A stretch of DNA of 64,000 nucleotides from Clavelina lepadiformis (lineage: Eukaryota > Chordata > Ascidiacea > Aplousobranchia > Clavelinidae): positions 8,186,501 to 8,250,500 of the forward strand of contig NC_135243.1 of the NCBI RefSeq assembly GCF_947623445.1, read 5' to 3'. The notes beneath the pieces are model-generated. The model saw only the letters and a program-made list of their open reading frames with translations. It did no database searches and was not told the DNA's origin. Each line of letters starts with the position of its first letter. The stretch's first letter is position 1. Position numbers and translations under genes: made by a program. Below, piece by piece: positions 2,650 to 52,493 of the stretch.

Positions 2650-5600
2650 TCACACGTTCTTACATCGAGGTATTTCGTCAGCACGCAAATTAGGAATGAT
2701 TTTGAGTAGCTCGACAATTCCCTCTTCCATGCTTATGTGAGCCTTGTAGCCCAAGTTGCGTATACGCTCGTAGGATACCGCGTAATCGCGCTTGTCTGCG
2801 TCCGAACCGCTGTTGGATTCGGTGATGCTGCAGCCTTCCACGTTGTTTTCGATAAGCTTGGCGACCTGAAGCTTGGTCATGTTCATTGATTCGTCTCCAA
2901 CATTAAACGGCTTTCCACTCATGGCTCTATAAAGGGGAAACAGTGAAACGTATTAGCTAATGACGAAAGGTGATCCTACGAACATTAAAGTATAGTTTTC
3001 AGTCTTAGTTTAACAGAGATATAACAATAACCAAACTTTCAATACATGGGACTAAAACTAATTTCGTAGCCACGGGGACCAAGTCTTTCAAACAAGAGCT
3101 AGGCGCAAAAATGTCTTAAGCGTTACAGTTATATTTACAGTATAAGCATACGGCATTTAGAGATATAGAAGTTGGATTGTGCTCAGCGATATGTAGTTTA
3201 AAGGCTAAAATTATCCTCAAAGTATACTTAATTTAAGATGCTCAAAATATCAGGATTATAATGAAAGTAAGGATGCATAAACAACGTATAAGAACAAAGA
3301 ACGAAATGCAACAATGTGTAAGAGAAATAATAAAATGGTTGTGACAATAATTGGCAGAATGATGTCCGTATTTGCATAAAAGAAAGAAACCTATTCCAGC
3401 ACATGAATAAGCACTGTTGACTAACTAATTCCAGTTTTCAACTTTTTAAAGTTTGCAATAATGAAGTTAAGCCTTTGTGTAGATTTATAATGGCTTTGTC
3501 ACGAAATTTTCACGTACTAATTCTTTTTATAATAACAAACGTGTTATAGTTTAGCAACGCACTATTCTTATACAGTATATCACTATTGATTTGTTTTTAG
3601 ATCTATATTTAGAGGTATTTCACCCACGATGCGTGACTTCGTACTGTGGAGTACGAATGTTTTGTGACACTTGTTATTCTTTTTATTGTTTTTTTTTGTA
3701 AGTTGTAAATACACGAAATTTAGAGCTTTTACGCCCTCCCCTTTTCAACTCTTGCCCAAGGCAGGTTACACTGCCCGCGATTCCTTGTCTCGCTCCTAAC
3801 TACGGTAAACTTCGCGGTGGTGATGGGAACTTGGTTTTATTCTACGTTTAGAGTTTGCTTAAGGAGCACTGGTGCTTTTATTGGCAGTAAGTGAAGAACG
3901 TTGATTTTATTCTACATATGCTCGAATGAACGTTATTAAAAGTTAGAAGATACAGAGATTGGCTATGTGACCAGAAGTAAGAGCAGGAAGTTTCCTGAAC
4001 TGGAGAATTTAGCGCGACACTTGTACAAAAACATGTCCTTGGGCTGATGGCAAAGATAAATTCGGGGTACGTGAAGTATGACATCAAATACTGCCACGTT
4101 AGTTTGATAATAACCTAGGAAAAAGTTCACTATCAAGCGGTGTACCGCTTGAGGATTGAGATTGGGGAAAGTGCATGGTCGGTTGGTCGCTGATATAGCT
4201 GTTGCGTAGGAGCTGAGAAATTCTTGCATATTGTGTCGAATCAAACTCAAGATGCTTTCTGCGTTTCTTACGTTGCTGCGTGCACAGTAGGTTGTTCGTT
4301 GGACTCCTTTTATTTTCTTTGTGTGTAAAAGTGTGCGACTACATTTAAATCTAGCAGTAAAGTCCAAATTTTCTTCGCCTATAGCATAAAACCTGTCTCC
4401 GAAACTACAAGTAGCAAACAGCAACATTAGCAGAAGCCAAAATTGCAAAAAATCAAATAGGTTCCAGCTGGAGTTATCAGGGATTAATTGATTTAGACTT
4501 TAGAGTTTGATTAGAAAGTAGGTATGATTTCGGTATAGTTTAGCAAGTGGGAACTTTTAAATGAAGTTACCACTTATTCAAAATCGCACCTAACCTACGT
4601 TTATTACTGGTGTAATGTTAGCTAAGTAAAATCTCACCAAACGTTCAGCATAAATCCAAACAGTCTCATAAGAAAATACACCAAAAACACACAAATTTCA
4701 TAAAAATATATTTGACTACTAATCACGAAAATGGCCAACCTCAACCAAAGTCTGTCTTGCCTCGTTCCTAACAGTAACGACAAAATTTCAGTTATAGGTT
4801 TGGCAAAAGCACACAGAACTTACTTGTAATGTTGCAAAGAGAATACAAATGCCCGCGCCGCGTCTCTGACGTGAAGGAATGTTCTTCTAAATCCTCCCTC
4901 GTACAGGTCAAAGGTCCTCATGCTTAACGCCTTCGAAGTCAGGTCGTTGACTAACAAGTCCAGGCGAAGTCGCGGGGAGACCTGCACAACAAAATACGAT
5001 CACGTGACCATATCTTTGAGGTTATAGATTCGCTTATAACCACGTGAAGTTTGCTCTTGCTGCTCCATGGCTATATGCCGGATGAAAATCAACACTTGAT
5101 CACAAACTATTCAAATCTTCTTCGATTGATTATTACTTAGAATTGTTTTTCGGTGTTTGTGTTTCATCAGCTCAAGCTAGATCGGTTTTTAAGTATAATT
5201 TGCAACATGTACCCTACTTCAGTGTTCAGTAATATGCCTAATACTGTAAATTGGTAAACTTCACACACAATTACCTGCAGTAGGTATATATTTCTGTAAA
5301 AGCACATGGTACCAAAAATTGTCTTAAGTTTTACGTGCAGCTCATTGCTCTTCTATAGGGGTATTATAATTGTGTATAGAACACCAGTATACCCGTACCA
5401 CAATATTTTCAGCTTTCATAAAAACTTACTCCAAACACAGTTGCGAGGCGGAGCGCAACGCCTCCGGCTGCAATGGCAACTTTCTCGCCTTCCGCCTTCG
5501 TTTCACCATAAAGAGTGATTGGGCTGATGGGAATTTCTTCCGTGCAAATTCCAGTAACGATGCCATAGCATGAACCTAAACGAACGTTACTTATTATTAC

Positions 5601-15225: not shown

Positions 15226-18200
15226 ATGCAGGGAATAACTATGAAGCTTGCTTTGTTTTTCTGCGCCTTGACAACTGTCTACAGGATTACCGATGGTGAG
15301 TTTTTTAAAGCGTTTAAAAATATCAAACAATAAAGCTGTCGCTGTTATTGGTATTTAAATGTAGTTTGCTGAGGCACAATTGTAACAATCAGGAACGCAA
15401 GTGTCGATAGCTGTGACACTATATTTCTGGATTTTAAACAAGAATGCAAACAAAGATTACATTGTTGTTTAGCAATACAAACTTTTTCTTTTTAACTTTA
15501 AAAAGTAAATGGACGTTAAAAGCATATCTAGGTTTAAAGCTAACATAGTATTTCCTTTCATTTGGCCGCTTAACTTTCACACACTGCATTATAGTTTATC
15601 TGGGTGTCCCAATAAAACTGAATTTTCGAACAAAGACTATCGGATTAAAAGCAAAATTGACGCTATAAGAATGCAGCAATACTGGTTCCGATAAAATCGT
15701 TTACTTGGCACACTTTTGTATAGACGCCAGATTTTTATCAGTATTACCCGTTAAGTTGCTTGATTTGGATGAATCAATATTTCAACTTTGTGTTAAGTCA
15801 TGGCAGGAATATCATTGTAGATTCGTTGCAAAGATCTCGGCTTAATGGGATAAGATATTATGCCCACATCCGATACAGTGACGAAAGAGGTGAATCTTAT
15901 TAGAGTGGAAGCTCATCAGATCGACTTCGGTTAATTAGAAATTTTCGACAACACAAATCAGCTTCACTTTTCTCAATATTCAACTAATTTAGCTATAACT
16001 TCGGACAACTAGTAGCTATTTGATCAGTTTCTTCAGCTTCCCCTTCACGTACGCAATTTTTTGAAAAGGTTTTACAGCTGCAAATTTTCTGTGGAAAAGA
16101 TTGTTCATGTTTTCGTTTTCATTTCTGCTTCTATTCTCGGACAACTTAGCATCTAAATGTTTCTTCTGTGGTTATATTGCCATGTTGAACATCCAGTGTG
16201 GCAATCTTTGTTACCTCTGTTCCGACCTTATCCAATTTCTAAAAACTTCCTTGGTGCCATTAAAGTAAACCGAAGAATATATTTTTCATTTTAAAATGGG
16301 TGAAAGCATAACATTTTTAGTTTATTGTGTTTGCTTCTAATTTATACGCATTTATACAAGATGGAACGCTAGGAAATATGTTCAGTGTCAAGGACCGTCA
16401 TTCTAACAAATCAAATAACGGTTGAAGCACTATAGACTTACAACAAACCTATATGTAAAATGATCTTAGGCTTCTGTTTGACTATAATTAAGCATAGAAC
16501 AAAAAGGGATTTTTTTTGCAAATGCTCCATGCATTGCTATGAATAAAAACCACCAACGCGAAATAGCAACGTTTTACTTGAAACACATGCTTATGTATAT
16601 ATCAAACATCAAAGACAAATTACTTAGTTCTGAATATGATCGTTTTGTCATTCATTGTGGGCTGAATTATATTCGAAAAATTTTAAAACCTAAATCAACT
16701 CGACTATATACAGATTTTCGCACAAAATATGTTTAATTTTTATAACAGGTATCAACTGTTTTGTGTGCGAAGATGAAGTCAACACTCAGCAATGTTTAAA
16801 CTCGGGCGAATTAAAGTCGTGTGAACCAGGAGAGGTATATACGAGAACAATTTTCTATGTATCGTATATTTTCGTTTTCTCGTATATTTTCTAGGAAGGG
16901 GGCAAATCTTTATACTGTATATAAGCGACTACATGTCTGTTAACATGCGTACACACCGAATTTATAGTATTATCTTAATCGGAATAACCAACTACAGAGG
17001 AAAGTACTATACAGCATTTACCTTCAACATTAACGTTATTTTTATGATTGAGATTAAACTGTAGTATATAGGATTTGGGGTATGTATATACAGACCAGCT
17101 TGGAACTTATTTTTTGTAATCAATAAAATTTGTAAAAACTGTCTTAATTAGCTTGCTACGCATGGTCATATACATATACATATAATGTATATACATATTC
17201 ATATACATGTTAATATTCATTTTAACAATCTATAGGTTATATATGTCGATTGGTACAAACTCTTGTTTATCTTACTAACTTACGTTAAGATTATGTTTGT
17301 GTTACTTTATCAATCGCTTATCATATGAACAGTCAGTAATACAAATAAGCTCATGAATTAAATCATTGTTCAAATTTCTTGATTTTCTGAGCTATATTTA
17401 GGTCTGCCTCAATGAAGTTCGCCGAAAAGGTGACGGAATAAGAATTACAAAACGTTGCAAGCAACCGACAGCTTGTCAAAACAATTATTTGCAGGTTTGT
17501 GATATCTATGATATTTAATAAAATTTTCGTGTCTTTTATGCAGACATAGATCTTTAAGTTGATAGAAGAAGATGTGACTTTAAGTCATTTAAATTTTGAT
17601 TTTCGTTTTTTTCTTTAAAATGCTTTAGTGCAATATTTTTATTTTCATTTAATCAAAGTACACTAAAATATCAATGCTTGTCATATATCGAATAGTTTTT
17701 TGGGGTGTGGTTTTCCAAGTCCATAATCTGCTCAAATATATAATATATTTACAACAAGCGGTTTCCGAGGTTATAAACGTTATAAGGAGGCTTGGCTCGT
17801 TCAGTTTACAGTGTACACATACTATTAGCGGCCGCACATAGCTAAAATAAAACCGCAAAAAAATTAAAAACTATAACGTGAGTCTTTAGCAAAACCGAAA
17901 TTGTAGTTTCAGTCCATAGCAGGAAACACCTCAAACCAATCAATTTACCTCATAGTAATGACTATCTTCTTTATCTGATAATTATAATTCACTCACGGAT
18001 TAAGGGCATTTGAAAAGTTTAAATACTATTCGGGTTTTCAGAACATTTGTAACATTTTTCTATAGATTAACCTATGACGCAACCAGAATTATTTAGGTTG
18101 ATAAATAATTAATTCATATAATAAATATAGTTTAGTGAGAAATATGTGTAGTGTACTATATAGGCTAGTATAGTGACCAAGACATTGTAAAATAATTAGG

Positions 18201-21200
18201 AATGTAAAACGATTTCATGTTAATTTAATCCACGGACGATTATTACAGAAAACCCAAGTGGACCCAAATAACATTCGTCGGCTAAATCTTCTTTGAGTTT
18301 TAACTAACCGACCACCAAACAAAATAAAACACTGTGGTGCTATATGCAAAGCGAATTCTAGGCAATGTTACGCTGAAATAAACTTCTTATACATCGCTGT
18401 ATAACAAAAGTGTTGATTTTAGAACGACAACGGAGTGGTACACCAGTGCAACGCCAGAAACCCGAACTTTGTTTGCCGCTGTTGTTGCCAAACTGATGAA
18501 TGCAACGCTGCCTCTTTGCCTTGTGTTGGAGGTAAGCTTTCAATAAGGGTCAATCTAAATGACATACGATATAAGTCTTACAAATAGGCTATAATATGCT
18601 ATAATATATATACTATATACTATAATATACTTATAAATGTATTGAATATTTAAATTACCAATATTATATGTCGGAGAATATATCATGTGTCCTGCGAAAT
18701 ATTCAGTTGTGTAGGCTATTCAATCGTTATGGCGACTTCCCGTCATATCATTTGTACGTCATGACGCACAGGATGCTTTGGGGCAATCTAGTTGACTCAT
18801 TCTGTAACGGGAGTAACCCAGAGATAGCACAATCAAGTATCATGCTCTTTTGAGTTAAGAATCAGTTTCAACTTTCAACTACAAAGTTGTTCAGATTTTG
18901 ATAAACGTTATCTGTACTTTCATCGACGATTTGTAACTGAACTGAAACACAAGATTTGTAACTGAATTAATATGCAATATTAACGATGTCAGCCCCTGTA
19001 TTTCATTGTAATATCGGTTAAAAATCACTTGGTTTCAACCAAGCGCAAAAATAGGTTTAAGATATTCTCTTTGCATTTGTCATAATCTTCAGCTTAATTT
19101 GCTCAGTTGTTAAATATCATATAAGTAAGCTATTAACAAAAATTTGAAGAAGATACTATAATTATAATAAGATGTACGTGATACCGGTTTATTGCTAGGT
19201 TATCCAGACGACTCAATTTCTGAGCCGCAAAGAAGCGAACAGCTTTTCTCCGATGACGAAGTTAATACGTTGAGATACTCTTGGAATGATCTTGTTCCCT
19301 TCGGTTTGGACACCGTTGGACTTCTGATTTTGCGCAGGTCTTAGGACATAAGTCTTTTAATTTTAAATCTCCATTTTATCCGGTCAATTTATATTTTATA
19401 ATTTAATCTTAATGTATAAGAGGTAATGACGTTACAACTTGCCGCAATACAACCTCTATATATGCGTGGCAAGCATCGATGAAAATGTTATCTTAGATTT
19501 TAAAGTAAAAAAGTGACAAATTTTTGGTTTGTTTTGCTTATAAGAAGATAACAATTATTGCCAGCAGCGTGGGCATTATAGAAGTGTTTATTAAAACTAT
19601 CTCGATCCAATGCAACAAATTCAAAAATTAAAAATAGTTTTTTATTGCGTAAAATGGATTCCACAAAAATACAAATCAAAAAATAACATATCCTTATTTT
19701 TTGTTCCATTCCTAATAACTTATTTGATTTGCTTATAATAGAAATGTTCTTTTCATTTTCTATCGTAGACTCTTCAACGACTATCCCCAAACCCGACAAC
19801 TCTTTCCCAGTTTAGACATACCCCAGGATGAATTACTTTCTTTAGAGCAGTTATCCGAAAATCCGCTTGTTGTTCTTCACGCAGAAAGGTAAGACAAATC
19901 ACATACTTTTTGTAGTATAACAGAAGATAAATATTTCCTGTTGGGAAAATGAAACAAACTTGTTTTGAAATTTTTACCTACTTTTTATTATTATAGGGTT
20001 GCCAACGCTGTAGACAACATAATTGCCATACTGGAAGAGCCTGAAATCTTAGTCGAATTTCTTACGTGGCTTGGCGAGCGCCACGCTGCTTATGGCGTGG
20101 AACCAATCAACTTTGAGGTAAATGTGGTTTATTCTAAATGTTTTCGAAACCAACTTTACTCTATGCAAAAGTCTGGTCGGCAATTGTTTGTCTATAAGTT
20201 ATATGCTTAATTGTCATTGCATGTATTGAAAGACGTTTAGCGTTTAGGATTTAGGGAATGTAAGCTTGTCATAGTACAATGCCGTATATGTTGTTTTGCA
20301 AAAAAGAAAAGCAGTTAATCGTCCATTATAATCAACCTGCAACCGTGTTTGTGCACTAATAATTTGAATATTTGTATCTCTACATAGTCAACTGCATGTT
20401 ATCTAAAAAAAAACGCAATCTGTTTGTGAAATATTAGCTTTGGAAACTATGAGAAAGCAAATGTGATCTATCTATTTGGACATGTCAAACCCAGTCACGA
20501 CTTTAAGTGTCTTTGAGCATAACTGCATATTTCCGTCGGTTCGTCCGCAAAGTATACGAGTTACAAATATTCATAATCAAGCAAACGTTGGTTTAAAAAT
20601 TCTCAACAACACATCACTTTCGCTGCGAGGTCTGTCACCGAAAAGAAATCTTCTAACAACTCCATCAAACATAAACGATATTCAACCGGGAGTTTTTAAG
20701 TAGATACAATTCAAAAGTATGAAAGCATCACGACATTAACATAAGCACAAAAAGGACAAAAATTTTAAAATCACAAAGACAAAGTTTGCGAAGAACATAC
20801 TGACACAAGTACAAGACATAAAACCACGGTTTAATTTCATCAAGCGATAAATACAAAGAGAGACCATGTACAATTCACCATATTATCTGTAATATTTGAC
20901 GGTTAATAACCTCAAAGCGCCAATTCTTTTTGTTGTGCGAGGACAAAGTTTTAAGCACATGCGCAACTAACTAAAATCAAACAGAATTAAAACGAGAAGA
21001 AAAAAGTGTTTACAAGGTGCGTGGGTGGAGCAGGTGCAGCATACTTGCTTGAACGGTGCCTGAGTCGAGCTGGAAAGTAATTATACCTGTATAGGGTAAA
21101 AGTGTTGATATTTTGTAGATAAAAGCATGCACAAAATATAGGGTGACTGTCCACAATACAGTCATAAACATATCATACTATATCACATTGCAATATACAC

Positions 21201-21434
21201 ATAGAAATTACTATATATAAGGCAAAAAAACAACGCATACATTTAAGTTCTGCTGTCTTGTGTTTGCAGTACATGGGGCATGTGATCTTAAACACTATAC
21301 AGGATACCTTTGAGCTTCAGGATGATTCCGAAATCTTGTCGGCTTGGGCAAAAGCTTACGGAGCAATCCGGCAAGTTATTGTTGACACAATAAGGTCATC
21401 AATAAAGGAAGAATCATACGAGCCAGCAGAGTGA
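15226..21434 (+). CDS. Secreted Ly6/uPAR-domain and globin fusion protein
   Basis: Eight exons: 15226-15295, 16749-16834, 17402-17494, 18423-18531, 19199-19337, 19769-19888, 19997-20117, 21270-21434. All junctions are GT-AG and in phase, giving 300 residues. Exon 1 is a signal peptide (MKLALFFCALTTVY). Exons 2-4 (about residues 24-119) form a Ly6/uPAR domain: CFVC at the start, paired cysteines through the middle, and the closing CCCQTDECN (CC-x4-CN) hallmark. Exons 5-8 (about 135-300) form a complete globin: Trp148 (A12), Phe178 (CD1), distal His203 (E7, in LHAERV), proximal His235 (F8, in LGERHAAYGV). The E7-F8 spacing of 32 equals that of neuroglobin and cytoglobin. Introns fall at the classical B12.2 and G7.0 sites, plus one at E10.2. 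There is no hydrophobic C-tail, so no GPI anchor: a soluble secreted heme protein is inferred. Function is unknown; the Ly6 domain would suit receptor or partner binding. Confidence 0.9.
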
Positions 21435-23766: not shown

Positions 23767-24687
23767 TTAATCGTCTGGCGCTCCGTTGTTGATGAGCACC
23801 ACGCAACCAAAACCGACCGTCCAGCTTGGTGAACATCCGTCCCCTGGTGTCGTTGACGACTCCACTGCACAAAAATCACTCGATTGGCTCACTTCGTGAT
23901 CGTACCGAGACAAACTTACGCCCCAAATGAGCTGCTTGCTGGCTGGAGCAGACTCAGCGGCCTGCTCTTCGGGAGCTGGAGTTTCAGCAGCTTCTTCAGC
24001 TGGAGCAGACTCAGCGGCCTGCTCTTCGGGAGCTGGAGTTTCAGCAGCTTCTTCAGCTGGAGCAGACTCAGCGGCCTGCTCTTCGGGAGCTGGAGTTTCA
24101 GCAGCTTCTTCAGCTGGAGCAGACTCAGCGGCCTGCTCTTCGGGAGCTGGAGTTTCAGCAGCTTCTTCAGCTGGAGCAGACTCAGCGGCCTGCTCTTCGG
24201 GAGCTGGAGTTTCAGCAGCTTGTTCTGCTGGAGCGGACTCAGCGGCCTGCTCTTCGGGAGCTGGAGTTTCAGCAGCTTCTTCGGCTGGAGCAGACTCAGC
24301 AGCCTACTCTTCGGGAGCGGGAGTTTCAGCAGCTTCTTCCGCACATATACGTTTTCGTACAGTGTAAGCCAACGAAGATATTGCTCTGTCGGCATCGAAT
24401 CGAGTCCCATTTAATACTCGATATTTGTTACTCTCCGTAGAACAAATGGGCTGCCTCGCTTCGGTACCTCTTCTCACCAACTCATCGTACTCTAAATCGA
24501 AAAGCGACAAGTCTCTGCCTCGTACATCCCAGCTTAAATCTTCATCGAGGCTGTTAATTAGAAGATGCTTCTTTAAAGCAGGATTCGCTTCAATCGTCGT
24601 ACAATAAGCGTCGAAGCGGTTGAAAAAGCTTTGGAAATCTTCGATGGGCTCATATATTGGTGGAGGAATAGCGAAACAGATGGACAT
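23767..24687 (-). CDS. Gag-like protein of the LTR element with repeat-rich tail, one internal stop
   Basis: The frame starts with an MSICFAIPPP leader. A helical gag-like region follows (EDFQSFFNRFDAYCTTIE, ALKKHLLINSLDEDLSWDV), a pattern seen in retrotransposon gag proteins that resemble SCAN/PNMA-type capsids. The rest is an acidic tail of about seven 20-residue repeats (AAETPAPEEQAAESAPAEE). A TAG at 24304-24306 replaces the CAG found at that place in every other repeat unit. After it the same frame stays open to TAA at 23767-23769. It is either a recent nonsense mutation or a readthrough site. No zinc knuckle is seen. Confidence 0.65.
23940..24340. repeat. 60-bp tandem array inside the gag-like frame
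   Basis: Nearly seven copies of a 60-bp unit (begins GGAGCAGACTCAGCGGCCTG) with few differences between copies. Several frames on both strands stay open across it only because the unit is a multiple of three. Confidence 0.95.
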
Positions 24688-41279: not shown

Positions 41280-41375
41280 GTAGGCCTATAACATAGTCAT
41301 TTTTCCGGAATTTTTTATCATCAATTCTGATTCAAAATTCTTCAAGAATCGAAGTCCTTGTATACCTATCATAAG

Positions 41376-41741
41376 CTCAGCGTCGTCAGCGTCGTCAGCG
41401 TCGTCAGCGTCGTCAGCGTCGTCAGCGTCGTCAGCGTCGTCAGCGTCGTCAGCGTCGTCAGCGTCGTCAGCGTCGTCAGCGTCGTCATCGTCGTCAGCGT
41501 CGTCAGCGTCGTCAGCGTCGTCAGCGTCGTCGGCGTCGTCAGCGTCGTCAGCGTCGTCAGCGTCGTCAGCGTCGTCAGCGTCGTCAGCGTCGTCATCGTG
41601 GTCAGCGTCGTCAGCGTCGTCAGCGTCGTCAGCGTCGTCAGCGTCGTCAGCGTCGTCAGCGTCGTCAGCGTCGTCAGCGTCGTCAGCGTCGTCAGCGTCG
41701 TCAGCGTCGTCAGCGTCGTCAGCGTCGTCAGCGTTGTCAGC
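41376..41741. repeat. 9-bp satellite array (GTCGTCAGC)n
   Basis: About 40 tandem copies with rare variants (GTCATC, GTCGGC, GTGGTC, GTTGTC). As the unit is a multiple of three, several frames on both strands stay open, encoding runs such as VVS or LTT. No start context or flanking homology suggests a real protein. Confidence 0.95.
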
Positions 41742-44700
41742 GACCCTATAGAGCAGAGACCTATAGTGTGCTTATTCAACCTTGACGCGTTTTTAAGTTT
41801 TCTGCAGTTTCCATCCTTATTGTTAGCAGTCTTTCATACTACCACAAGAGCTCTTTCGACAGGACGGGGCCCTTCCAGTTTCAACAGCTACATTCTACAA
41901 TACATTTACAAATACTGTATTTCACTCCGTTTATGAGCATTCTGATTCCCACTTTATCTTATTTAAATTTTTCTTTAGTGATCGATTTATCACGGTCTGC
42001 AACAACAAAATATACACTTCTAAGTTTTCAAACTCTGAAGTGAGCGTAAGAAGCATAGTTCTTCCATTGCAGAAACAATTTAATTTTTACCTTGCGTTAA
42101 AAACAAACGGTTCGACTTTATAAAATATTTAACCGCTCTATACATAACAACATATAGTTCACAATGCACCTATAATAATTACTTGGCAGCGAAAACTCAG
42201 AGTTGTTGCTTAGATATAACTTCAGTTTTACGTTCCTAGTCGCAAAACACAAAAATCTTCCACGTTCCAGAAGAAGGATGCCCAGGACAAAGTAACTATG
42301 AGGCAACTAAGCGAAGTCATGAATCCCACCATAGAACGCACTATTGCTGTATACGCTAAAACGTAGATTTTCGGTTTTAGTTCAATCATCAAATCGGATT
42401 GGGATAAACATCAAAATTTGAAAAAAAAGCGTTAACAAACAAGAAATGGAAGTCAGTGTTGTCAAAAACTTATCAACCGGAAACGTAACGTCGCATAAAT
42501 CTCTGATCGGTATCTTTCGATATGGAATGTATGTTATTGTGGTGATTATTTCTGGAAGCCGTGTGCAAGTAACCATCAAAACATGCAAATTGTGCATATC
42601 GTCTTCTCCTTCCAGAGAAGAAAGCTTGTTGTAAGGTAATGAGAAAAAAAATAATTTTGACAATAGTTTATTACTCCATGGCATAGACACGCAATTGATA
42701 GCCTTGCTTCTGCCGCTAACTGACAGTAGAGGGATAGGCCAAGAAAATAGCTCGTTTCTCTGAAAAAACGTATTCTTTAGGTTTTCACATAGGCTTATAT
42801 ACTTCAATTAGAAAATTATTGGATTGTTTTATTTGTCTTTGATGGTCAATCGCAAGCGCAGAAGTTCGGTGTATTACGCACAAATTACTATATTCGAAAT
42901 ATTTCGGTGGAAACTCGGCGCTTTCATCAAATGGCTTTTGAAAAATCTAACACCAGATTTGAGACCCGTAGATTGTACATGATGGATAACTTATAAGTCT
43001 ATGTTCTTGCACAGGATATTTTTTATAACGCAAACCTCTTTGTACAGGTTTCACGCTAACAAACAAATTTTGATTATAGCTGCTTGGTAGGGACTCATGA
43101 TAGCATAGATAGATGGCTATAGCACTAATACCGATACTTACCCGCACAAATCGGCTACGGAAAACATTTCCATCAAAGAGTGATGCTTTTTGCATTCTTG
43201 AGATGGGCTCACCATGAAAATGCCTTCTTTGATTATTCCTTTCCTAAAACAGATTGCATATAACTTAGTAATGAAACTTTATACAGTGATGAAATTCAAG
43301 CTTAGTAGCTTGAAAATACTTGAATACCGTAGAATACGTCTACTTACAATCTTTGGTCAGATTTTATTTTTCAAATTTTCCAATGTTATACACAGACTTC
43401 TTACGCTCATAACTTTGTCCACGAGACACCGTAAAACCTTTATTTGCCTTTTAATTACATAACTATAAGTGAAATAAGCAGTGCAGCAAGGCAAGTGTCC
43501 TAAATTACTAAGAATAACTCAAGTTTTATCCAAATACTTATCACAGGCTTATACAGACCTACGAGTTATTTTGAGGTGTCATTGTAACAAAAACTCATCA
43601 ACGCTTCTTGCGACTCTGCCTAATGATTGTGATTGCGCATTATTCTTTCCCTGTGCCGGGGTTTGGGAGCTGGACGTAAATGTTGCTTTTTTCTTGTTTT
43701 CACCCTCCTTTTTTTAACCAATTTAATGCGTTTTAAACAGTTGACTAAAGTGGTCATTCAGGATCTCTGGCGGTCCATTACAATGAAAAATAATTGAGAA
43801 GTAAGATGAACCTACTATGTGAATTGATGAATCTACTTGTTTTGTTTAGCTATAAATCACTTCATTAAACCATGCTATTAGGTTGTCCCCATTCGGCAAC
43901 GAAATCATAAAGTTTGTTTTGCAAGTCTGCTGACACCAGTACCCATTTTCAATGCATGTCTTTGGATTCGTATTCGATTTGGCAAATCTTTACAGTCAAT
44001 TCGGGTCGGTAGAAAAAACTACAAGTTTTATTTTTGGTTAAAGCTACATCTTTTACGACAAATTTTTTTAACGTTTTTGCAGGCCTACAAATGCTATTAA
44101 GATGGAACCGAAAATTTGACGGCAGTTGGCATAGCGTTATAATCGACAGCATTGTGACGAAATTGTAAAAACCACCACATATTACGTTACGTCCCGTTTT
44201 AATTCAATGCAAAATACAGCGTTTCCACATATAGACAGCGCTGATAAAACAACTTGGACCATGTGACTATGCAGACCCATCATTTACACAATATACAAAG
44301 CGGAAATCGTTTATAACGGTTAGAGTTAGCAATACCGTTATTTTGTCGTTTTATTGTTGCGTCCTTTCATGCGTTATGTTTTTCTATGCGATGCCAAAAG
44401 CAAATGCGTGTAAAACCAACCGCAGTTAATAATTTTCTTTTGTTAGTGCTTGTACTTGGTTGGGAAAATATTAGTTGCCTCAATTTTTCTTCTATAGACA
44501 ATTTGTTATAAAACAAACGAAAAATTAAAATATAATTTTTTGTCTCTTTTCTCCCTCACCTATGGGGTCGTGTTTCTAACTCGACATCCGGGTTTGCCGC
44601 AAACTGACAAGAGAAATCACATTAACTGGGATTGCACATTACAGCAAAAAACAAAAGCTACTTTCCATGTGTTCCAAGTCAACTTAACCCACGGACGATT

Positions 44701-46805: not shown

Positions 46806-49800
46806 ATGAATCGAAAATGCGAGTTGCTGGTTTTCCTTTTCTGCATGTCTTTCGTCATTTTATCCTCAAGCGAATCTAATCATCCGATGCTCTTTTTCTC
46901 CGAAGAGGATTTGCCGAAGATGCGAGAAAAAGCTGAATCAAGCCATCGCCGCATCACTGCCTTGATAAAAATAGCAGGACAAAGATTAAAAACAAAATCA
47001 AAAGATTACTTGCCACCCGAGTCTTTCGAAACATTTGGAAGCAAATGGAACGAGCGTTACGGCAATAGCCTGTGCACGTTTGCGTTTTATTGTACGCTTT
47101 ACCCTGGCGACGAAGAAGCTTTTAACCTGGTAAGATATACTCCATTTTGGATATGGATTTATGTTGACATATGGCTTGATTAACCACATGTTGTCTATGG
47201 ATTTTGTAACTTAGTTTTGCTGCGTTCGTTGATTACTTATATGTTGTAGTGACGTATTGAATGAACTAAGGCTACTAACTGGTTAAAATCATACACACAA
47301 TCAATAATTTCCAAAGCAAACTATTTACGGCAGCTAACAAAACTGTTCAGGTTACACGTACATGAGGTTTAATGGAAAGAAACCTTTACAGAACTAACTA
47401 TTGCAATGACGCAACGCCGTAACCCCTCTTCAGTTTCTTCAAATATATTCAATCTATTCCCAGATAAAAACTTACATGGACCGTATGGCGTCGTATCCGG
47501 ATTGGTACGTCACATCCAGTCGCGGGAATGATGAAGTTCCCATTGGACACAGCTTAACAGGATTCGCAACCGCGTACGATTTTCTTCATGGTCGCTTCGA
47601 AGACGAACGAAAAAAAGTTTATCTTGAAAAGATAGTGGAAGTGACGTCAAACATGTACCGCCTGATGCGCAGCAAGTGGAAAGCATGGGCTCGGGAGCAC
47701 ACTCACAATCACGCCCCAACTAATATAGTTGCTGTACTACAAGGAGCTTTAGTGGCGAAAAAACACGAAGTAGAGAAAGGTGATCTTTCAAAGATACGAG
47801 AAACGGTTTGATTGTCCATTACAGTCTTATTCTGTTCTCTTTTTAATCTAGATATGTTCTATGTCACCAATTAGCCATTAAAGTATTCATGAAAACGTAA
47901 CAAATAAATTATTCATTCCAATACATAATACATCTTTAAAATTACCCGATTGATGCCTATAAACATAGTTTTATATGTTGAATTCGAAATGGATTAAATC
48001 GTGACTAATCTGATTCGATTCCTAACAGTTTGAGAACTTGGTTGTGATGGTTGGTTCATTCAACTTTTCTTCTTCTTTTCTTTCATTCAACCAAACTTTT
48101 ACATGTTTCATAGCCAATGTATGGAAGGAGAAAGCTGTCGAATTATTGGAAATAGGATTGAGGACATTACAATTGATCCCTGATGGCAGTAGCGACGAAG
48201 GCGTAGCTTACGCATCCTACGCTGCCAGAGGATGGATGCAATACATTTTTTTGGCAAAGCGTCATCTGGGCGTCACTCATGAAAACCACCCTTGGTTAAG
48301 GAACCATTTCTGGTTGTACTACTCTACCGTCTTGCCTGGTTATTACGGCAGCGTTGGAATTGCAGATTCGAATGCTAACTGGTTTCACGGTCCATGTAGC
48401 CAGCTGGTCTTTCTGGACGCATTTGTGATGAAGAATGGCTATGGTAACTGGCTTGCGGATCGCATTCGAGAATCTAGGATGGAAAAAAAGCTTTTTCTTC
48501 CGGATTGGACTCACGAATACAGTACCGTCCACCTTGAGTTTATATTTTATGATGAGCGCATACAAGCCAGACCCCCGCCCAAGCACTTCGAAAAACTTCA
48601 TTTTTTTCACGATTGGGGTGTGGTAACCTACGGGGGTGGACAAGCTTTGAAGGACGGCAATAGCTTTCTATCGTTTAAGTCAGGCGCAGTGAATGGAGAA
48701 GCTATTGCTGACTCTGTTGAGCAACGTTTGTTCAGTGACATAATCAGACCCTGGGCAAGCATTAACAGCGGGCACGAACACCCGGATCAGAATTCTTTCA
48801 CGTTTGCCCCAAATGGACGCCGTTTCATCACCGAGGCGCTCTACGGACCTAAATTCACTCACCTTAACAATGTCTTGACTTTTTCCCCGTCCAAAAGCGC
48901 TCAGTGCCACGAACCTTGGGAAGGGCAAATTGGAGAATGTAGTAAATGGCTAAATTACGAACATGTCCCGGTCCCTAGAGGCAAAGTTGTCACGGCAACG
49001 AATTGCGGCGACATGGTTCACATTGCTGGCGAAGCAGTAGATGCTTATAGGCAAGTAAATACTAAACAAAAAGCTTCTATCTGTCACAAGACGGTATAGA
49101 ATAGCAATAGGGTTTGTCAAACTGTTTTTTGTATTTTTTTTCATTCTTCTTTTTATAACTTACATTACTTAAGTAATTTAACATAGAGCAATGTGCTATC
49201 GTCTTGGATTTAATTTGCAGTTCAGAATTGGCGCTAGAGAGTGTACAACGGTCAATGGTTCTTCTCAATCCTGAAGTCCTTATTGTTGTTGATAGCGTTT
49301 ATCTCTCAACGAGGAGCCATTTGCGAAAAGCGAGCGCCTTTTTTCACAACATCGATTCTGCTTTCAGGCAAACTCAGTTTCAACAGTTAAACGGTAAAGA
49401 GTCTAATTTCTGTTTTTATTAATCTTTGTTATTAGTTTCGGCAACACCAACAGCGTCACTAGTACAACAAGGTATGGCTTTAGCAAATTATTTTCTAACT
49501 TCTTTTCTAACTAAGCATGTTTACGTAATTTCAGGAGCTGAAATTCTTCACGAAGACGGGAGCTATCGATTCGTTTGGCAACTTTGTGGCGGTGATTCCC
49601 CTAAACCAACACTACATGAAGAAGCCATCGCCACTGAAGGGCCACCAAGAACGACTCACTACGTGAACGTAACATTCCCTCTGAAGCCTGGCAAACTCAC
49701 TCGTATGGCGTACGTATTTTTTGGACCAAATTCGAAGGTTGAGTCGATTCACTGTCCGAAGACTGGACCCGATCATATAATAAAATTTTCCGCAAAAGTA

Positions 49801-52493
49801 AACGGCATCCACTATAAATTAACTTCCATGCCGCTTAACGCAACGCTGAAGACAAGAAACGAATTTTTGGGCTTCGGAGGATACTTGCGCGTCGAAAATA
49901 ACAACAGCACATATTACTTTGGGATGGGTGACAATTGCAATCTGAAGGATTATCCACAAACTCCAGTTTTCTTAAAAGAACTGAGGCTTCCGGTGTTATC
50001 ATCGTCAGGAAAAGTTACAGAAAAAGAAGAATGTTTCAGCAAAAGTTCTGTATGGCACTGCGTCTTCTTGTACTCGTTTTTCGTCTATTTCATCATTATT
50101 ATAAGAACAAAGTCAGATCGTTATTATAAAAGGTAAGTGTACGCAACTAAGTTCAGTCCCATAGACACGCTTGTTTGATAAAATTTCACTATGCATCCTA
50201 TGTAGTACAGTATAGAGGTAGTACGGTATATATGTCTCTAATCTGCTTTATTCTACTAAGTTTTTACGTGATTTTAGGTATTATGTTTTTTGCTTTCTTG
50301 TATTATCCGTCACCTGGATGGTCGTCACACTTTACTTCTCTACTCGTGCTGCCTGTGGGCCTGCTTCAACTGACTCTACTGAAACTGAGCAGGCCATTGC
50401 TGAGAATAAACTGTGAGGGAGTCAACGTAGAATTGAAAAATTTTCCGCATAATTTTTTTATTCTTTAAACATTTATGACACTTTAATTTTAGCCTCACTG
50501 CCCCAAAAGCTTCCCTCCCTATCCTTCCTATGGTGGTAATTACGTCACTACCCGGTTCTGGAAGTGAAATATTGGAAACGGTTTTTCTTAATTCGAGTGA
50601 TTTCACATATTTATCAACTCATGACGTCACAATTCCAGTACCGGATGACGCAACGAAATTTAATCCTTGCTACTGGCCAAAGAACGACATTAAAGTAAGA
50701 AAGTTGTGGCGTCATAATTTCTCGTGTTTAGCTGCTGTTTATAGCCTGAGCATTTTTATACGACTAACTTAATTCCGTGCAGTTCTTGGAAACGAAGTCG
50801 AAAACGGCCGGTTGGTTCCTCTCAATGAAAACAGAACCTTTGAGTTTCTTCAATAATATTCCTGAAAAAAACCCGAGAGTGTCCTATGCTCGACGAAGAA
50901 TAAGAGAATTAACAAAGAACTCCAGCCCCGCAATCAATTTGTTGAACGGTTATTGGAACACAAAAGTAAAAGTTGATTTAAGTTTGATTTGAGTATCACA
51001 AAGGCATCCATTTTGGGAAATTCGCAGTCAAATTTGCTGCAAGGTTAAATTACAGTACTGACGTTACATAGATAGTCAAGACACGAAATGTTGATAGTTT
51101 TTTTACCGCAAGACGTCGCTGTTCATTTATTGGCAACGAAACGTATCACAAGTTTTAAAACAACCCAAATCTTTACTCCATATATTTTTAATTTGTAAAT
51201 ATAAGTGGAATTGTTTTCCGAAGACTTGTTGTCGTCGGCTAGCGCTAAACCCAGTGTTCCTGATCACTATTACAGAATGTTCTTCGGTATAAGGAAGACA
51301 CATAAAATGCTATTGCTTTTGTTATTTATAAATCCATATAGTTAAAAAGTGCCATTTTCATATCAATAAATTTATTACATTGAGAAAATAAGTGCGTCAA
51401 TCTGAGCGGGTTACCGCATATAGGACAGTTAGAATTAGACCCCGCCATGTAAAGCGAAACTCTTTGTGATTGGCTGATGACTAATTCTTTTCCTTTTATC
51501 TCTGGTTTGTATTTAATATTGTTGTGTTGCGTTTAGTTGATGAAATAATTGGTAAACATTTAGAACGTACTTTATTACAGATCTCATGGCTCAACGAGGT
51601 CTTGGGAGAACAAATGCGGTCAGTTTACGTAGTGCGTGACCCACGTGATTGGATATACTCCCTGATCCGTGACGATTTAACGATGGATAAAATGAGAATG
51701 TTAGTAATTTGGACGAACACAACTTTACTGCTGTTATCATAGCATCACCTGACTAGGAAAAAGTCTTAATTTATAAACTTTTTATGCAGTCAGCAGGTGC
51801 TCTTAAGAAATTTTCTTCATCCTGAAACATGTCGCTCGCCAACATGGCTGCCCCGACCTTATCGACAAACACAAAGTCACGTGACCGATAACTTGATTGA
51901 AATACTTTCCATGGTATGGAAAGCTGATGTGAAAACTGTGATCGGAAATGCAAAATCACTGCACATTGTACGGTTTGAAGACATTCTTACAGATCCTCAT
52001 AAAACGGCGGCAAAACTATTGATGCAGTATGGGATAACGATTTCCTTGCCTCAAATAAATCGCATTACGAGGTAAAGTTTTGCTAAAATTTTACCAGAAA
52101 ATTTATACTGTGCATAAACTCTGGTACAGCTTTTGTGCGTTGTAAGCACACGCTTGTTTTCAAACGACATTTGTAATTATTTGATTTATTGTAGTTGTTT
52201 CATTACCATTATTTAATTATTTGAAAGTGTAATAACAAGCTTATTTCGCCAGTGAACAAATATATCAAGCTATTAATAACCCTAACGGTATCACTGCACA
52301 GTATTTAACGCAGTCGTCGTGTTAGCCTGCTTACTTTTTCAGGGCAGCACATAGCGGGTTCTATAATATTTATTACGAAGGTCCGCTCCATAGAGATTAC
52401 GCCGGTCAATGGAGAGGAAAAATGACGCTGAAAGATGTCAAAATCATAGAAGATATTTGTCGAAACCTCATGAAGCAATTATCGTACTTATGA
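46806..52493 (+). CDS. DSE: Dermatan-sulfate epimerase with C-terminal sulfotransferase-like domain
   Basis: Eleven exons: 46806-47129, 47464-47805, 48128-49050, 49221-49393, 49535-50132, 50278-50412, 50493-50694, 50783-50965, 51581-51699, 51790-52071, 52343-52493; 1143 residues. A signal peptide (LLVFLFCMSFVIL) precedes the epimerase domain, which converts glucuronate to iduronate in chondroitin/dermatan sulfate in the ER-Golgi. The three catalytic residues known from human DSE are kept: His about 191 (HNHAPTN), Tyr about 250 (GVAYASY), His about 438 (GHEHPDQNSF). Two membrane spans follow (HCVFLYSFFVYFIIII and YYVFCFLVLSVTWMVVTLYF). The C-terminal part has both PAPS-site motifs of sulfotransferases (VITSLPGSGSE and VYVVRDPRDWIYS), as in vertebrate DSEL. 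Intron 3 uses a GC donor (AG|GCAAGT). The exon 3 acceptor is the least certain border; 48129 is within a base or two, and an in-phase AG at 48028 would add 33 residues. Confidence 0.93.

What the first reader, a model, noticed from the sequence alone, without database searches (positions are those of the whole stretch)
15226..21434. Secreted Ly6/uPAR-globin fusion protein
One spliced frame joins a signal peptide, a Ly6/uPAR domain with the CC-x4-CN hallmark, and a whole globin with Trp A12, Phe CD1, His E7 and His F8. I know of no described globin with a three-finger domain. The fusion is supported by eight in-phase exons; the junction (exon 4 end to exon 5 start) is phase 1, which matches the phase-1 border at the start of the Ly6 domain and so allows domain shuffling. 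A secreted heme protein with an adhesion or receptor-binding module could sense or carry O2 or NO at the cell surface.
Basis: partly seen in the sequence, partly recalled or inferred. Interest (0 to 1): 0.93.

Follow-up and report, generated by a model that had tools for sequence, protein, structure and literature searches.

The report
Secreted three-finger-globin fusion in sea squirts
A sea squirt gene joins a small protein-binding module of the Ly6 type to an oxygen-binding globin, and another sea squirt has the same fusion, where the module had been described only as uncharacterized sequence.

Summary
The window lies in the ascidian Clavelina lepadiformis. The eight exons read in frame to 300 aa, identical to NCBI's 'cytoglobin-2-like'. 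Two Ciona proteins align end to end (44-45%), keeping 14 of 14 cysteines of the first domain and the heme-pocket residues of the second. One is Ciona Gb-4/hb4, already in print as signal peptide + 'uncharacterized sequence (133 aa)' + myoglobin-like domain (PMC10650076). So the fusion is not new, but its first domain was unnamed there. I identify it as a Ly6/uPAR (LU) domain nearest to LYPD1. Pfam misses it, and the link runs through a family of related modules in the same genome. The module has phase-1 borders. In 8 of 16 fetched module regions Sushi and/or VWA matches follow, so LU looks shuffled in tunicates, whereas a 2019 review thought it probably not a true mobile module. Stand-alone Clavelina globins share the fusion's three globin introns; three of four begin with Met at the A helix, suggesting that LU exons were spliced onto such a gene's 5' end. 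Secretion, heme binding and LU-guided docking are inferred. Both AlphaFold models leave the LU part at low confidence.

The parts
15226..15295 (+). Exon 1: signal peptide (ends in phase 1); a second in-frame ATG at codon 6 aligns with the Ciona start
   Evidence: 12-residue hydropathy maximum 2.07
16749..16834 (+). Exon 2: LU domain, Cys 1-4 (C27, C30, C39, C48); starts in phase 1, ends in phase 0
17402..17494 (+). Exon 3: LU domain, Cys 5-7 (C54, C71, C77); phase 0 at both ends
18423..18531 (+). Exon 4: LU domain, Cys 8-10 with CC-x4-CN (C104, C105, C110, N111) plus C92, C101, C103, C117; starts in phase 0, ends in phase 1
19199..19337 (+). Exon 5: linker and globin helices A-B (W148); starts in phase 1, ends at B12.2
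19769..19888 (+). Exon 6: globin B-E, Phe CD1 (F178) and His E7 (H203); ends at E10.2
19997..20117 (+). Exon 7: globin E-G, His F8 (H235); ends at G7.0
21270..21434 (+). Exon 8: globin G-H, C-terminal tail and stop; no strongly hydrophobic GPI-type tail (maximum 12-residue hydropathy of the last 40 residues 1.06)

Best explanation
One gene makes a secreted two-domain protein: a signal peptide, a 14-cysteine LU (Ly6/uPAR) domain of the LYPD1 kind, a short linker and a complete 3-over-3 globin. Origin (inferred from the anatomy): a signal-peptide exon and a three-exon LU module with symmetrical phase-1 borders, of a kind present in many copies in this genome, were spliced to the 5' end of a stand-alone globin gene, turning its start region into linker. 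Action (inferred): the LU domain is the address label. It docks the globin to a partner on epithelium or in the matrix, plausibly at the siphon, where Ciona Gb-4 is reported. The heme (His E7, His F8, Phe CD1) then handles O2 or NO locally, by binding, buffering or redox chemistry, and not as a bulk blood O2 carrier. Shown: gene model, domain content, same architecture in Ciona, conserved pocket and cysteines, module family. Inferred: secretion, disulfides, heme binding, docking, chemistry. I put the architecture at about 0.95 and the docking-plus-local-chemistry role at about 0.35 (lowered from 0.4 on checking, because the Ciona paper itself calls the tissue specificity uncertain).
Against: No transcript data were available. 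P0001 matches no LU model of Pfam. Its isolated domain reaches only E 0.15 with PF00087, under the cut-off. The profile of the three fusion domains alone gives LYPD1 at E 0.032 only. The two AlphaFold models leave most of the LU part under pLDDT 50 or at 50-71, and the 50 Foldseek rows shown are all globins. The module has three exons, where a review describes two as typical for LU genes. The LU domain of the Clavelina fusion is 52% identical to two other ascidian modules but 40% to Ciona's. The globin tree does not resolve the fusions as one group: 50% of bootstraps. The authors of the Ciona paper say that the tissue specificity of Gb-4 'remains uncertain', and their primers lie in the globin part (my reading of the forward primer), so their RT-PCR does not prove the joined transcript.
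Confidence: 0.7

Rival explanations
1. The LU part is only a secretory or folding aid, or an oligomer-forming cap, and the protein is a plain extracellular O2 store or carrier in the body fluid.
For: Yano et al. class Gb-4 as 'invertebrate extracellular globin' (PMC10650076). The globin pocket residues are kept. Ciona carries three N-glycosylation motifs in the globin part.
Against: Ciona Gb-4 is reported in the siphon (specificity called uncertain) and not induced by hypoxia. The LU domain keeps 14 of 14 cysteines and a NEVRR stretch, more than a mere leader would need.
Confidence: 0.3
2. The fusion arose twice: LU modules were joined to globins independently in Clavelina and in Ciona.
For: The Clavelina LU domain is closer to most Clavelina modules (up to 52%) than to Ciona's (40%). 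The globin tree leaves the fusions unresolved: 2 changes, 50% of bootstraps with one.
Against: In the LU tree the fusions form one side of a branch, with weak support (78/49; 80% of bootstraps; several long branches). Among the rows compared, and apart from the other Ciona protein, Ciona's LU is nearest to Clavelina's fusion (40 against at most 38%), and the globins are each other's nearest (46 against at most 38%). Domain order is the same, with a short linker of similar length.
Confidence: 0.15
3. Two neighbouring genes, an LU protein (exons 1-4) and a globin (exons 5-8), merged by gene prediction.
For: Both halves are complete domains, and reading on into intron 4 would give a short stop-ended tail.
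Against: The globin half has no start codon of its own. The exon 4/5 border is in phase. Two Ciona proteins have the same join.
Confidence: 0.03
4. The N-terminal cysteine-rich domain is not LU but an unrelated disulfide domain.
For: No Pfam LU hit for the full protein; low-confidence model of this part; one of five rows of the fusion-only profile is an unrelated designed protein.
Against: The two family profiles find LYPD1/LYPD6 and other three-finger proteins only. The ten-cysteine order and the Asn after the tenth cysteine match the published consensus.
Confidence: 0.03

Closest known systems
Ciona Gb-4 (hb4, CinHb4; Q70PH6)
   Same: Same order of parts, end-to-end alignment, 44-45% identity, 14 of 14 domain cysteines and the four heme-pocket residues named here kept. 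Described as signal peptide, 'uncharacterized sequence (133 aa)' and myoglobin-like domain (PMC10650076). That P0002 (Q70PH6, 'globin precursor', 293 aa) is this Gb-4 follows from name and length.
   Different: The LU nature of the middle part is not named in the parts of that paper that I read (parts 1-3 of 5), and 'Ly6' occurs 0 times in its main text. Ciona has three N-glycosylation motifs in the globin, Clavelina none.
LYPD1 (Lynx2) and LYPD6/LYPD6B, LU-domain proteins
   Same: Best PDB matches of the module family, with the cysteines aligned along the domain.
   Different: C103 has no partner in the LYPD1 alignment, and C117 lies beyond the end of that chain. Three exons in place of the two that a review calls typical. 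No GPI-type tail. Fused to a globin.
LU-Sushi-VWA protein of Clavelina (P0003) and LU-VWA protein of Styela (P0004)
   Same: Same LU module at the N-terminus behind a hydrophobic start; 52% and 39% identity to it.
   Different: Continue into VWA (and, in P0003, Sushi) domains and not a globin.
Androglobin and other chimeric globins
   Same: A globin fused to another domain in animals (abstract of PMC13331133 seen in the listing).
   Different: Androglobin joins a permuted globin to a calpain protease domain in a ~1500-residue protein. Here the globin is uninterrupted, predicted secreted, and joined to LU.
Starfish LyAr2, an LU domain in a GPCR-like receptor
   Same: An LU domain of LYPD1 likeness attached to a non-LU part (PMC11595613, passages).
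   Different: The partner is a membrane receptor, not a globin.
Extracellular globins of annelids and other invertebrates
   Same: Globins outside the cell, as discussed for Gb-4 in PMC10650076.
   Different: No LU domain is mentioned in the passages read.

Membership tests
Globin (3-over-3) | Sequence profile | tested here: met
   PF00042 64.7 bits, cut-off 22
Globin (3-over-3) | Proximal His F8 and Phe CD1 (with distal His E7) | tested here: met
   H235, F178, H203 aligned to cytoglobin and invariant in 3 of 3 fusion proteins; helix names recalled
Globin (3-over-3) | Globin fold | tested here: met
Globin (3-over-3) | Ancestral introns B12.2 and G7.0 | tested here: met
   Exon 5/6 and 7/8 borders; positions described as conserved in PMC3087553 (passages); the assignment to helix positions is mine, by recalled comparison
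Globin (3-over-3) | Binds heme | not testable with these tools
   Needs protein
LU (Ly6/uPAR) domain | 60-90 residues with ten ordered cysteines and Asn after the tenth | tested here: met
   C27, 30, 39, 48, 54, 71, 77, 104, 105, 110 and N111, 84 residues from first to tenth Cys; consensus from PMC6600238; that C104 and not C103 is Cys 8 is my assignment from the LYPD1 alignment
LU (Ly6/uPAR) domain | Recognisable by profile | tested here: met
   Met through the module family. Pfam alone misses it, and the fusion-only profile is weak, E 0.032
LU (Ly6/uPAR) domain | Three-finger fold | tested here: inconclusive
   Strands predicted, but mostly at pLDDT under 70; fold lists filled by globins
LU (Ly6/uPAR) domain | Disulfides 1-5, 2-3, 4-6, 7-8, 9-10 | not testable with these tools
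   Needs protein chemistry or a structure
LU (Ly6/uPAR) domain | Exon set flanked by phase-1 introns (called general in PMC6600238; the two-exon layout it calls typical is not found here, there are three) | tested here: met
   Exon 1/2 and 4/5 borders are phase 1
Extracellular globin | Signal peptide and secretion | tested here: inconclusive
   Hydrophobic N-terminus only; SignalP was reported for Ciona Gb-4 by others; no secretion assay
Vertebrate cytoglobin (the NCBI name) | Orthology to vertebrate cytoglobin | not tested
   Only one vertebrate row was in the tree. PMC3087553 says that Ciona globins are not 1:1 orthologues of vertebrate globins

The most novel reading that the evidence does not exclude
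The protein is a secreted gas-gated ligand: the LU domain binds a cell-surface receptor, perhaps of the nicotinic kind that LYPD1 relatives act on, and ligand or redox state of the attached heme changes that binding, so that local O2 or NO is read out at the siphon or tunic epithelium.
Probability: 0.12. Interest if true: 0.88.

Novelty: new variant of a known kind. Interest (0 to 1): 0.62.

Why it matters
It gives a name to the unexplained half of a globin with a signal peptide known in Ciona and shows that the architecture is shared by ascidians of two orders. [quoted passage not shown] In Clavelina the same kind of module precedes a globin in one gene and Sushi and VWA domains in another. 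If the heme protein is really addressed by an LU domain, it offers a testable case of a targeted extracellular globin in close relatives of vertebrates.

Tried and rejected
Two-gene reading: rejected, since the globin exons hold no start codon and Ciona has the same join. Pfam family scans of the genome for Globin and UPAR_LY6 found nothing. The six-frame search works exon by exon, and the UPAR_LY6 control rang in none of 14 genomes, so this shows nothing. A protein query worked. AlphaFold: two models, with 3 and 5 sequences, left the LU part weak. VIA-align and Foldseek listed globins only in the 50 rows shown by each, and no LU match appeared in those rows. Third homologue search with residues 20-121 found only P0001 and P0003 among 6 candidates. 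It did not even return the Ciona proteins, so its sensitivity was low. The fusion was seen in Clavelina and Ciona only. A divergent one in Styela or other tunicates is not excluded. Paper searches, PMC library only, 9 answered: globin/Ly6/uPAR/tunicate, Ciona globins, chimeric globins, three-finger/Ly6/ascidian, LYPD and LU, Clavelina/globin, LU with von Willebrand, complement control and exon shuffling. No listing or passage that I saw names an LU-globin fusion. Ebner et al. 2003, cited as the first report of hb4, was not read.

Rows dropped: for the module alignment I used 11 of the 22 Clavelina loci L008-L009 and L011-L030. The rest were overlapping or near-duplicate views of the same modules (among them L019, which is P0003's gene), or lacked a clear first or middle exon in the 3 kb held (L011, L024, L026, L029, L030). 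For module companions I asked for 36 regions and received 16.
Full report
What the window is. The window is C4:8186501-8250500 of a 209 Mb genome. The gene's product is identical to an NCBI protein of Clavelina lepadiformis, whose contig length equals that of C4. Clavelina is an ascidian of the order Aplousobranchia.

The gene. Eight exons with AG/GT borders give 300 aa. The identity of this product with the NCBI protein shows that another annotation reached the same model; I cannot see what evidence that annotation used. There is no in-frame ATG between the last upstream stop and exon 5, and the product has Met only at 1, 6 and 248, so exons 5-8 cannot start a globin by themselves.

Same architecture in Ciona. 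Of the 6 proteins returned at E<=0.01 in the profile search, three have both domains: P0001 and two Ciona proteins, P0002 and P0006. The other three are P0003 (LU, Sushi, VWA), P0004 (LU, VWA) and P0005 (a 202-residue protein from a JGI contig, with a globin domain). P0002 and P0006 align end to end with P0001 at 45 and 44%. The 14 cysteines after the signal peptide are invariant, as are W148, F178, H203 and H235. Ciona belongs to another order, Phlebobranchia.

What is in print. Yano et al. 2023 (PMC10650076; [quoted passage not shown] They report expression of Gb-4 only in the siphon, but add that its tissue specificity remains uncertain; they report no induction by hypoxia, and a SignalP-5.0 prediction; its presence in body fluid could not be shown. 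The forward primer for Gb-4 encodes FDYMGPV (my translation), which lies in the globin part, so their RT-PCR does not test the join. 'Ly6' does not occur in the main text.

What the first domain is. Pfam gives no LU hit for the full protein. Scanned alone, the isolated domain reaches only PF00087 (Toxin_TOLIP, snake toxin and toxin-like proteins) at E 0.15. Over the 16 module rows scanned at E<=10, 13 touch PF00087 (best 8.2e-06), 10 UPAR_LY6_2 (best 0.0004), 2 UPAR_LY6 (best 0.0011) and 1 Activin_recp (0.003). A profile of 13 modules without the fusions finds the domain in P0001 at 4.6e-25, P0006 at 1.2e-13 and P0002 at 2e-13, and does not report the one bacterial-type globin row in that file (search space set to 177635). 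A profile of the same 13 matches LYPD1 at 3.1e-07 and LYPD6B and LYPD6 at 5.7e-05 to 2.4e-04; 7 of 7 matches at E<=1 are three-finger proteins by name. With the fusions included, LYPD1 is at 1.4e-07 and 10 of 10 matches at E<=10 are. That candoxin, short neurotoxin, PSCA and SLURP-1 are three-finger proteins is recalled; TGFBR2 is listed among LU proteins in PMC6600238. With the three fusion domains alone the match to LYPD1 is weak, E 0.032, and one of the five rows at E<=10 is an unrelated designed protein. The ten cysteines and the Asn after the tenth fit the published consensus (PMC6600238, sections 4 and 18 read whole, other passages seen). Of the four further cysteines, C92 and C101 have partners in the LYPD1 alignment, C103 has none, and C117 lies beyond the end of that chain. 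C103 and C117 are missing together in module L027, which suggests that they pair with each other.

The module family. A search of the genome with one Clavelina module gives 79 exon-level matches at E<=0.1 on eight contigs, a lower bound that includes exons of the fusion itself. In 16 of 22 loci looked at by pattern, the three parts of the module are all seen in order; in L008, L020 and L027 the second and third parts lie in one open frame. Downstream of the module, on its strand, 8 of these 16 have Sushi and/or VWA matches at E<=1e-3 (L038-L042, L047, L048, L050; in L047 and L050 only Sushi-type matches). In L047 and L051 my pattern did not see the module itself at the start of the region. None of the 16 has a globin match at that threshold. 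Nearness within 9.6 kb is not proof of one gene; P0003's own locus (L039) is the one shown case, since P0003 is annotated as one protein, and P0004 of Styela is another such protein. So the LU module is found in more than one setting in ascidians. The review that doubts LU as a bona fide mobile module names a few other settings, and a starfish LU domain in a GPCR-like receptor is in print, so the present case adds to a short list. The review describes two exons per LU domain, split at the tip of loop 2. Here there are three exons with internal phase-0 introns between cysteines 4 and 5 and between 7 and 8, so the gene layout is atypical.

Origin. Four other Clavelina globin genes (two at C4:8.35-8.37 Mb, about 145-165 kb from the fusion, one at C4:22.1 Mb, one at C2:3.83 Mb) can be spliced at the same three places as the fusion's globin, B12.2, E10.2 and G7.0 (I chose the splice sites by eye). 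B12.2 and G7.0 are described as ancestral, and E-helix introns as variable (PMC3087553, passages). Three of the four start with Met directly before the A-helix stretch; in the fourth (L032) I saw no in-frame ATG in the stretch read. The simplest history is that a signal-peptide exon and LU exons were spliced by a phase-1 intron onto the 5' end of such a gene. Whether once or twice is not settled. The LU tree keeps the fusions together in 80% of bootstraps with weak branch support (78/49) and several long branches, and the globin tree is undecided (50%). Within the rows compared the two globins are each other's nearest, 46% against at most 38%. I favour one origin.

Function. LU loops generally bind proteins, and relatives such as Lynx2/LYPD1 and LYPD6 act on nicotinic receptors (PMC11595613, passages). 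The named heme-pocket residues are kept, and the globin's best match among solved structures is cytoglobin. There is no strongly hydrophobic tail of the GPI type. I therefore read the protein as a secreted globin addressed by its LU domain. The reported siphon expression and lack of hypoxia induction in Ciona fit a local role better than bulk O2 transport, but the authors call the tissue specificity uncertain. This last step is inference, and on checking I lowered it from 0.4 to 0.35.

Noticed in passing
G000 contigs C1, C3-C9; L036-L051: A large LU-module family in Clavelina (79 exon-level matches at E<=0.1), with Sushi and/or VWA matches downstream in 8 of 16 regions fetched, which bears on the view of LU as a non-mobile domain.
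   Followed up: partly
G000:C3:20733781-20992843; L044-L046: Eight matches to the last LU exon spread over about 260 kb; in the four copies read (L044 twice, L045, L046) the stretch CNGGPPTSVCTCCCSKDLCN is identical, a sign of recent local expansion.
   Followed up: no
L033/L035 (C2:3.83 Mb) and L034 (C4:22.1 Mb): Stand-alone globins with unusual positions: Leu where E7 His is expected (L033), Gly where Trp A12 is expected (L034).
   Followed up: partly
L032 near 4120-4250 and L031:6026-6151: L032's globin has no in-frame ATG in the stretch read, and L031 holds a second, partial globin exon on the other strand; possible pseudogenes or unrecognised exons.
   Followed up: no
L008, L020 and L027: LU modules whose second and third parts lie in one open frame, apparently without the intron seen in the fusion gene.
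   Followed up: no
window 47410-50136 (+): Long open frames (133, 357 and 237 aa) that look by recall like a dermatan-sulfate epimerase-type gene; the two longer ones gave no Pfam hit at E<=0.01.
   Followed up: partly
window 41284-41936 and 23767-24440: Long low-complexity repeats open in several frames: a trinucleotide-like array, and an AAESAPAEEAAETPAPEEQ-type repeat.
   Followed up: no
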